From positions 1-64,000 of IMG/VR virus record IMGVR_UViG_3300025872_000041: a DNA stretch of 64,000 nucleotides; one strand, given 5' to 3'. Made by a program: the position numbers and the translations under genes. Below the pieces are notes generated by a model, which saw only the letters and a list, made by a program, of their open reading frames with translations, made no database searches and was not told the origin of the DNA. This DNA comes from a virus. Positions 8,978-11,490 of the stretch are shown in pieces (the stretch's first letter is position 1; every line of letters begins with the position of its first letter).

Positions 8978-9084
8978 TAGTCAGGACAGGATTTGAACCT
9001 GTATGATAAGTAGTAAAGTTGTTTAAGTGACAATACACTTACTTATCTATTCACTTCTAGCGTCTACCATTCCGCCACCTGACT
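8978..9084 (-). tRNA. tRNA-like gene A, oversized centre, anticodon not assignable
   Basis: The ends are those of a class II (Leu-type) tRNA. There is a 7-bp acceptor (AGTCAGG/CCTGACT), a D arm GGCGGAATGGTAGACGC, and a T arm ACAGG-TTCAAAT-CCTGT with discriminator A. The segment between D and T arms is 57 bases, about 24 more than in the normal tRNA-Leu nearby. No canonical 5-bp/7-base anticodon arm is visible. The centre instead holds an 8-bp helix, GATAAGTA/TACTTATC, enclosing TAAGTG/CACTTA. It may be a processed or inserted tRNA, a decayed one, or a tRNA mimic. Confidence 0.6.
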
Positions 9085-9277: not shown

Positions 9278-9392
9278 TAGTCAGGACAGGATTTGAACCT
9301 GTAATGGTAAAGTGATTTTGTTAGCGGAACTACGGCTTCCACACCGCAATTCCAATTTTCACATTTAGCGTCTACCATTCCGCCACCTGACT
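9278..9392 (-). tRNA. tRNA-like gene B, same ends as A, different 65-base centre
   Basis: The acceptor, D arm and T arm are identical in sequence to tRNA-like gene A. The region between D and T arms is 65 bases and unrelated to A. It can fold as GGAA/TTCC and CGG/CCG around TGTGGAAG. No anticodon arm with U33 is evident. Identical shells around different cores imply duplication followed by replacement or rapid change of the centre. Confidence 0.6.
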
Positions 9393-9398
9393 ATAAAA

Positions 9399-9440
9399 AA
9401 CCCCAGCAGTTTCTGTTGATCAGACAAGCTTACTGGGGGT
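9399..9440 (-). terminator. Intrinsic terminator before tRNA-like gene B
   Basis: CCCCAG (9401-9406) pairs with CTGGGG (9433-9438). The minus strand continues with GGGGTTTTTT directly before the tRNA-like 5' end. The loop is long (26 bases) and has internal pairing. Confidence 0.65.
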
Positions 9441-9544
9441 TGTTACTAGTTATGTATTCCCAGTAACTAGAATGACCATTTAGCAGTTCTTACGGTATGC
9501 TTAATGGTACATGGCCTATGAATACTATTCACAGGGTTGATCTT
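9440..9544 (-). other. Non-coding stretch with further hairpins
   Basis: On the minus strand this holds, in order, TGAAT/ATTCA, a roughly 10-bp bulged helix ACCATT-AGCA/TGCT-AATGGT, and CTAGTTA/TAACTAG, before the terminator at 9399-9440. No open frame longer than about 22 codons is seen on either strand. It is likely part of the same RNA locus. Confidence 0.5.
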
Positions 9545-9745
9545 AAAAAACAACTCCTTGCATGATCACCATGCTTTTAGATTTTACTGAACATAGTTTA
9601 CTGTTCACCTGTTGCTAAAGTGCGCACTGGCAGAGCAGGGTCCATCACAGTAACCTTGAGGCATTTACTCACTTGGGTAATTACTCCCAGGAGTCAAGGT
9701 TTCTTTCAACGGTGCTAATCCGTCTTCTGTAAGAAGTTGTTTTTT
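9545..9745 (-). ncRNA. Candidate structured RNA closed by a 15-bp stem
   Basis: Bases 9731-9745 pair with 9545-9559 along 15 bp (one G-U). On the minus strand the RNA ends in six U residues, so the closing stem also works as its terminator. Inside are CTTCT/AGAAG, ACGG/CCGT, AACCTTGA/TCAAGGTT (8 bp), GAACA/TGTTC and GCATG/CATGC helices. It begins three bases after the tRNA-Leu and has no credible ORF. A long closing stem with an open interior recalls regulatory RNAs such as 6S RNA, but no family is recognised. Confidence 0.6.
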
Positions 9746-9747
9746 GG

Positions 9748-9833
9748 TACTACCAGTGGGAATTGAACCCACACTGTCATTACTGACAACAGGATTTTAA
9801 GTCCTGCGCGTCTACCTATTCCGCCATAGTAGT
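9748..9833 (-). tRNA. tRNA-Leu (TAA anticodon)
   Basis: This is a complete class II tRNA of 86 bases: acceptor ACTACTA/TGGTAGT, D arm GCGG...CGC with GGTAGA loop, and anticodon arm CAGGA-CTTAAAA-TCCTG giving anticodon TAA. It has a long variable arm with TGTCA/TGACA, T arm GTGGG-TTCAATT-CCCAC and discriminator A. CCA is not encoded. It is the first gene after a host-type promoter and could supplement the host pool for UUA/UUG codons, which are frequent in these AT-rich genes. Confidence 0.93.
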
Positions 9834-11036: not shown

Positions 11037-11411
11037 CTAAGCCCCCCCAAAAATTCTAGGTAAGAAAGCCAAATGACTATCTCTTTCTTCAACAGCTCTT
11101 TCATGCCAACGAGTACCCTCGTTTAACTCATAACCGTTGTTTAAGAAAGCGACAGTCTTTTCTCTTAGCCTGTTAAGAGCATCACTCATATCTACCTTAA
11201 TATGATCAGCAAACTCCTTACGGGTTAGCGTAAACGCAAACTTACCATGATAGCAGATGTGCGCAAATAAAACAGGGTTACTAATGTATCCCCATCTTTC
11301 TTTACCTTCTACTGTAGTGATGCAATGCTCTATCATTCTACCATAAGGAAGCTTAACAACTAACTCAATTGTTACTCCTTTAATATCTAATGTTTCTTTT
11401 ATTGTTTCCAT
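11037..11411 (-). CDS. Hypothetical protein, 124 residues
   Basis: ATG at 11411 (METIKETLDIKG) is preferred to an in-frame GTG at 11417. The first half is beta-rich (VTIELVVKLPYGRMIEH); the second is helical (ALNRLREKTVAFLNNGYELN) and ends LPRIFGGA. No family recognised. Upstream lies a repeat-rich non-coding region. Confidence 0.65.
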   Translation of the reverse strand: METIKETLDIKGVTIELVVKLPYGRMIEHCITTVEGKERWGYISNPVLFAHICYHGKFAFTLTRKEFADHIKVDMSDALNRLREKTVAFLNNGYELNEGTRWHERAVEERDSHLAFLPRIFGGA

Positions 11412-11490
11412 ACCCACTCATATAGTGACGCTTTGAGCCTAAATGCTGTTTATACTCGCTCAAACGAGTGTTAATCAATGTATTAGCCAT
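11380..11490 (-). CDS. Possible 36-residue basic peptide overlapping the next gene
   Basis: ATG at 11490 gives MANTLINTRLSEYKQHLGSK and ends at 11380, overlapping the start of the 124-residue gene by 32 bases in another frame. It could be a leader peptide that couples translation. Weak support. Confidence 0.3.
   Translation of the reverse strand: MANTLINTRLSEYKQHLGSKRHYMSGYGNNKRNIRY

What the first reader, a model, noticed from the sequence alone, without database searches (positions are those of the whole stretch)
9545..9745. Unassigned structured RNA closed by a 15-bp stem next to a phage tRNA-Leu
The minus-strand RNA is bounded by a 15-bp helix (9731-9745 with 9545-9559, one G-U), holds at least five internal helices and ends in U6. 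It starts three bases after a tRNA that has a clean host-type promoter, so it is very likely transcribed. It has no ORF and fits no RNA family I know. The long closing stem with an open interior suggests a polymerase-binding or regulatory RNA made early in infection.
Basis: partly seen in the sequence, partly recalled or inferred. Interest (0 to 1): 0.75.

Follow-up and report, generated by a model that had tools for sequence, protein, structure and literature searches.

The report
Phage tRNA-array RNA, full-length freshwater-1
A 200-nucleotide RNA carried right behind a tRNA in an aquatic crAss-like phage is real; its middle is the catalogued but unexplained freshwater-1 RNA, and relatives show that the whole RNA sits in tRNA arrays of two unrelated phage groups and probably pairs with a second copy of itself.

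Summary
In detail: the minus-strand RNA 9545-9745 is closed by a 15-bp stem. It is not unassigned. Its middle (9582-9649) matches Rfam RF02979, freshwater-1 RNA (66.3 bits, E 2.7e-15, below the gathering score of 72); close homologs pass that score. Rfam models only 62 nt. Here 68 distinct relatives define a ~200-nt RNA. A structure with closing stem P1, a covarying helix P2 and hairpins H1-H5 pairs in 97.7% of cells, with 252 compensatory cells against 76 in shuffles. It occurs once per genome in 29 of 29 member records, both crAss-like and T4-like (Gp23) phages up to 310 kb. In 53 of 63 cases it begins within 6 nt of a tRNA 3' end (ten anticodon types). It is often followed directly by another tRNA. 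A near-identical phage lacks it. The H3 tip is self-complementary in 62 of 63 distinct members but with four different palindromes (GUGCAC, UGGCCA, GUCGAC, GUGCGCAC), exchanged about 12 times on the tree. I infer a trans-acting RNA cut out by tRNA-processing enzymes that forms homodimers through a kissing loop. The molecular function remains inferred.

The parts
9545..9745 (-). full-length freshwater-1-type structured RNA, about 200 nt
   Evidence: model R1, 199.8 bits; 97.7% of pair cells intact over 39 relatives
9731..9745 (-). P1, 5' strand of the closing stem
   Evidence: 15 bp with 9545-9559; 8 of 9 aligned pairs have double changes
9545..9559 (-). P1, 3' strand of the closing stem
9727..9730 (-). 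P2, 5' strand (ACAG)
   Evidence: ACAG/CUGU, ACAU/AUGU and ACUG/CAGU in relatives; 100% paired
9647..9650 (-). P2, 3' strand (CUGU)
9708..9724 (-). H1 hairpin GACGG-AUUAGCA-CCGUU, nearly invariant
   Evidence: 23-mer spanning it found exactly in 40 IMG/VR stretches
9654..9699 (-). H2 long hairpin with covarying basal and middle helices
9608..9639 (-). H3 hairpin CCUG...CAGG
9619..9628 (-). H3 tip, 10-nt palindrome AGUGCGCACU, proposed kissing-loop (homodimer) site
   Evidence: palindromic in 62 of 63 distinct members with four different cores
9588..9607 (-). H4 hairpin UGAACA-GUAAACUA-UGUUCA
   Evidence: all 6 pairs have double changes
9560..9574 (-). H5 hairpin GCAUG-GUGAU-CAUGC
   Evidence: all 5 pairs have double changes
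9582..9649 (-). part that matches Rfam RF02979 freshwater-1
   Evidence: 66.3 bits, E 2.7e-15, gathering score 72
9745..9833 (-). tRNA-Leu(UAA) whose 3' end abuts the RNA
   Evidence: ARAGORN, Rfam tRNA 61.2 bits
9840..9847 (-). Bacteroidota-type -7 promoter box TATATTTG
   Evidence: TAnnTTTG about 95-120 nt upstream of the RNA in 13 loci
9395..9440 (-). likely intrinsic terminator of the tRNA-RNA transcript
   Evidence: sequence and fold

Best explanation
It is a phage-encoded, trans-acting structured RNA of about 200 nt, the full-length form of freshwater-1 RNA. It is transcribed with tRNAs and released by the tRNA-processing enzymes: its 5' end by maturation of the 3' end of the upstream tRNA, its 3' end by RNase P cutting the next tRNA or by a terminator. 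It folds into a junction closed by P1 and P2 that displays hairpins H1-H5, and two copies pair through the self-complementary tip of H3 (kissing loop) to give a homodimer, possibly larger assemblies. Shown: homology, structure, position, single copy, two unrelated phage lineages, palindromic covariation. Inferred: processing, dimer formation and any role in infection, most likely next to the phage tRNA pool or the ribosome, in the same niche as GOLLD.
For: Rfam core match, with homologs above the gathering score. Closing stems of 8-23 bp with very different sequences in relatives. 97.7% of pair cells intact, 252 double-changed cells against 76 +/- 8 shuffled and at most 38 in slid controls. 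53 of 63 members begin -5 to +6 nt from a tRNA 3' end, ten anticodon types; 29 of 61 have a tRNA within 60 nt downstream, usually -3 to +7 nt. One copy in each of 29 records, 9 crAss-like by TerL and 16 with Gp23. H3 tip palindromic in 62 of 63; four palindrome cores with 12 changes on a tree built without H3. Three further palindromic cores among four alternatives has a chance of about 1e-3 if tetraloops were random. GOLLD, an RNA of the same phage tRNA niche that forms homo-oligomers (PMC12286853), is on the same strand of 7 of the member phage records searched.
Against: No RNA-seq or biochemistry. One member (L113) has a non-palindromic tip (GUACACA). GUGCAC/UGGCCA switches could be exchange of whole hairpins between phages rather than repeated mutation. 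Fourteen records of crAss-like relatives, including a near-identical phage, lack the RNA (many are fragments), so it is probably dispensable.
Confidence: 0.58

Rival explanations
1. It is a cis-acting element of the tRNA precursor: it helps processing of the array or keeps RNA polymerase reading through long untranslated tRNA arrays (put-like antitermination).
For: Always near or inside tRNA arrays, one copy per genome.
Against: Not tied to the start of the array: in L110 many tRNAs precede it. It is joined to ten different tRNA types. Conserved loops and a conserved palindromic tip are not needed for this. In the window it follows a single tRNA found by ARAGORN.
Confidence: 0.18
2. It is a base-pairing small RNA that regulates mRNAs through its invariant unpaired stretches (GAAAG, GAUGGA, AAAUC).
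For: Several single-stranded segments are nearly invariant.
Against: Invariant segments spread over a complex junction are more typical of a structural RNA; no target was sought or found.
Confidence: 0.12
3. One reading: 6S-like RNA that binds RNA polymerase early in infection.
For: Long closing stem, small size, plausible promoter box.
Against: No 6S match; the interior is a multi-helix junction, not a promoter-like open bubble; position in tRNA arrays.
Confidence: 0.04
4. The H3 palindrome serves the DNA level (a dimeric protein site or a recombination site) and the RNA merely contains it.
For: Perfect DNA palindromes of 6-14 bp.
Against: The surrounding helices evolve as RNA; four unrelated palindromes argue against one protein's site.
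Confidence: 0.06

Closest known systems
freshwater-1 RNA (Rfam RF02979)
   Same: Homologous core H3-H4 and flanks; 66.3 bits in the window, up to 84.7 bits in homologs.
   Different: The Rfam model is 62 nt and lacks P1, P2, H1, H2 and H5; the phage carriers, tRNA position and palindromic tip are not part of the Rfam entry as seen here. The window has a longer H3 tip.
GOLLD RNA (RF02032)
   Same: Phage RNA in tRNA islands, homo-oligomeric through RNA contacts (PMC12286853); on the same strand of 7 member records.
   Different: 416 model positions, no match in the window record; forms nanocages, which is not shown here.
ROOL RNA (RF03087)
   Same: Phage RNA near tRNA islands, assembles with quaternary kissing loops (PMC12286853).
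   Different: 574 model positions, not found in these records (without a positive control).
6S RNA
   Same: Size and closing stem.
   Different: No family match, no open central bubble.

Membership tests
freshwater-1 (RF02979) | covariance-model score at or above the gathering score of 72 bits | tested here: not met
   window 66.3 bits, E 2.7e-15, full model 1-62; an insertion in the H3 tip probably costs score
freshwater-1 (RF02979) | homology to sequences that do pass the gathering score | tested here: met
   L011/L090, 84% identical over the element, scores 84.7 bits; L087, L122, L128, L110 and L100 also pass
freshwater-1 (RF02979) | core helices CCUG/CAGG with capped hairpin and following 6-bp hairpin with 8-nt loop | tested here: met
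GOLLD (RF02032) | match to the GOLLD model | tested here: not met
   none in the window record
GOLLD/ROOL-like homo-oligomer | self-association through RNA contacts | not testable with these tools
   indirect: palindromic tip in 62 of 63 members
6S RNA | match to any 6S family | tested here: not met
   E-value limit 10
6S RNA | binding to RNA polymerase | not testable with these tools
   needs pull-down

The most novel reading that the evidence does not exclude
Freshwater-1 is a small self-assembling phage RNA: cut out of tRNA precursors as a cassette, it forms kissing-loop dimers, and with the second, often palindromic H2 tip (UAAUUA or UAGCUA) higher-order RNA-only assemblies. It would be a compact counterpart of GOLLD and ROOL shared by crAss-like and T4-like phages of Bacteroidota.
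Probability: 0.3. Interest if true: 0.82.

Novelty: new member of a known kind. Interest (0 to 1): 0.62.

Why it matters
In Rfam freshwater-1 is a 62-nt motif without a known function. Here it gains its full architecture, its carriers, its genomic niche and a testable way of self-association. It shows one single-copy RNA cassette shared by unrelated large phages, adding to the evidence (GOLLD, ROOL) that phage tRNA islands are where self-associating RNAs of unknown function reside.

Tried and rejected
blastn of the element against 50,697 phage records found nothing beyond tRNA or chance, so no record of that collection carries a copy detectable this way. Two genome-contig hits (L159, L160) are chance pattern matches without the rest of the RNA; L161 is the window phage or a near copy, binned with a Chitinophagaceae MAG. 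One gapped viral scan had a wrong spacing and returned nothing. Other Rfam hits (mir-BART7, rdlD, flavi_FSE) are below gathering scores and chance-like. A group I intron, RNase P, tmRNA or SRP reading was considered by eye and dropped; Rfam agrees. GOLLD as an alternative solution (mutual exclusion) was rejected, since both occur together. The L017 partial model hit (22.9 bits) was not followed. A window-wide search for TTTG...TAnnTTTG promoters was not significant (7 against 3.45 expected), so the promoter claim rests on local conservation only. The 2017 source paper of the Weinberg motifs is not in the library.

Full report
Setting. The window lies in a 114.6-kb IMG/VR virus record. Its terminase is 68-100% identical to many virus contigs and about 24-26% identical to crAss-like phages of gut origin. 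The finding is on the minus strand, between a tRNA-Leu(UAA) (9745-9833) and a stretch with a further conserved hairpin and a terminator.

Observation. The 15-bp stem is present exactly as described, and the region folds better than shuffles (z -2.76). The encoded CCA of the tRNA overlaps the first base of the stem. The U6 is inside the stem, so it is not by itself a terminator; a better terminator is at 9395-9440.

Identity. Rfam at gathering scores gives nothing here. With the E-value threshold the middle, 9582-9649, matches freshwater-1 (RF02979) over its whole model with 66.3 bits, E 2.7e-15, gathering score 72. Homologs of the same RNA pass that score: L090 84.7, L087 82.7, L122 74.5, L128 73.4, L110 72.9, L100 72.1 bits. 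The window RNA is therefore a member by homology. The Rfam model covers only 62 of about 200 nt.

Relatives. An invariant 23-mer from the 5' part, a gapped pattern from the core and shorter patterns gave, with covariance model R1, 90 matches, 68 of them distinct. Matches from different searches coincide: the 5' 23-mer and the core pattern largely find the same RNA.

Structure. In nearly all of 42 less redundant members the flanks form a closing stem of 8-23 bp although its sequence differs from phage to phage. On an alignment of 39 sequences, a structure with P1, P2 and H1-H5 pairs in 97.7% of cells, 28 of 41 pairs have changes on both sides, and 252 cells carry double changes. The shuffled control gives 76 +/- 8 and slid versions at most 38. 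The middle of H2 also covaries (CUU/AAG, CUC/GAG, CUCUC/GAGAG, CUUC/GAAG). The conserved structure differs in part from the minimum-energy fold of the window sequence alone.

Context. Of 63 distinct members with enough upstream sequence, 53 begin between 5 nt before and 6 nt after the 3' end of a tRNA, of ten anticodon types. Several of the others follow the tRNA-like elements described below. Of 61 with downstream sequence, 29 have a tRNA within 60 nt, mostly starting -3 to +7 nt from the end of P1. So the RNA occupies a slot in the array as if it were a tRNA, which is the basis for inferring release by tRNA-processing enzymes. A TAnnTTTG box precedes the tRNA-Leu in 13 loci, crAss-like and T4-like, consistent with Bacteroidota hosts (consensus from established knowledge of that phylum). 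The RNA occurs exactly once in each of 29 records searched whole. Nine have a terminase related to the window's, sixteen have the T4-type major capsid protein Gp23, four have neither. It is patchy: the record of L003, whose terminase is 99% identical to the window's, has the tRNA-Leu followed directly by the next element, and 14 crAss-like records, many of them fragments, lack a match.

Self-association. The tip of H3 was not constrained by the gapped pattern scan. In 62 of 63 distinct members it is a palindrome of at least 6 nt; the cores are UGCA, GGCC, UCGA and GCGC, and the exception is L113. On a tree built without the H3 columns, these states change at least 12 times. Stem pairing explains the outer pairs, but not why the four unpaired tip bases are nearly always self-complementary (1 in 16 by chance each time). 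The simplest reading is an intermolecular kissing loop. H2 tips are palindromic (UAAUUA, UAGCUA) in most members, but UCGCAA in about a dozen, so a second contact is only a possibility.

Relation to known RNAs. GOLLD and ROOL are phage RNAs near tRNA islands that form homo-oligomeric cages, with kissing loops (PMC12286853). GOLLD is found in 7 of the 28 member phage records searched, crAss-like and T4-like, always on the same strand as this RNA and in two cases about 2 kb away. They are therefore neighbours rather than alternatives. ROOL was not found, but that search had no positive control.

Limits. There are no expression data; E-values of R1 are rough; the 2017 description of the motif could not be read here, so it is possible that its authors noted a phage or tRNA context. 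The library held no paper naming freshwater-1. What the RNA does for the phage is inferred only from its niche.

Noticed in passing
window 9279-9392 (-) and 8979-9084 (-); also L003 5233-5359 (-), L084, L100, L108, L114, L122, L158: tRNA-like elements with a constant acceptor stem (AGUCAGG/CCUGACU), D arm and T arm but a hypervariable body replacing the anticodon and variable arms (total 88-180 nt); about 23 distinct copies, several per phage. They look like natural tRNA scaffolds carrying variable RNA, and the freshwater-1 RNA sometimes starts right behind one.
   Followed up: partly
window 9474-9510 (-): Conserved hairpin with covarying stem and the tip GCAUACCGUAAGAUCUGC, often followed by a U run, in 8 distinct versions in related phages; no Rfam match; possibly a terminator with a conserved loop.
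   Followed up: partly
window 11408-11469 (-): Pistol ribozyme, 63.4 bits.
   Followed up: no
records of L086, L102, L109, L131, L137, L153, L228: GOLLD RNA shares the genome, and the strand, with the freshwater-1 RNA.
   Followed up: partly
L161 (JAFMJI010000035.1, 45 kb): A contig binned as a Chitinophagaceae MAG carries the window phage's RNA and an identical terminase, a weak hint at the host.
   Followed up: no
L103 and L122: Members with about 60 nt inserted in H2.
   Followed up: no
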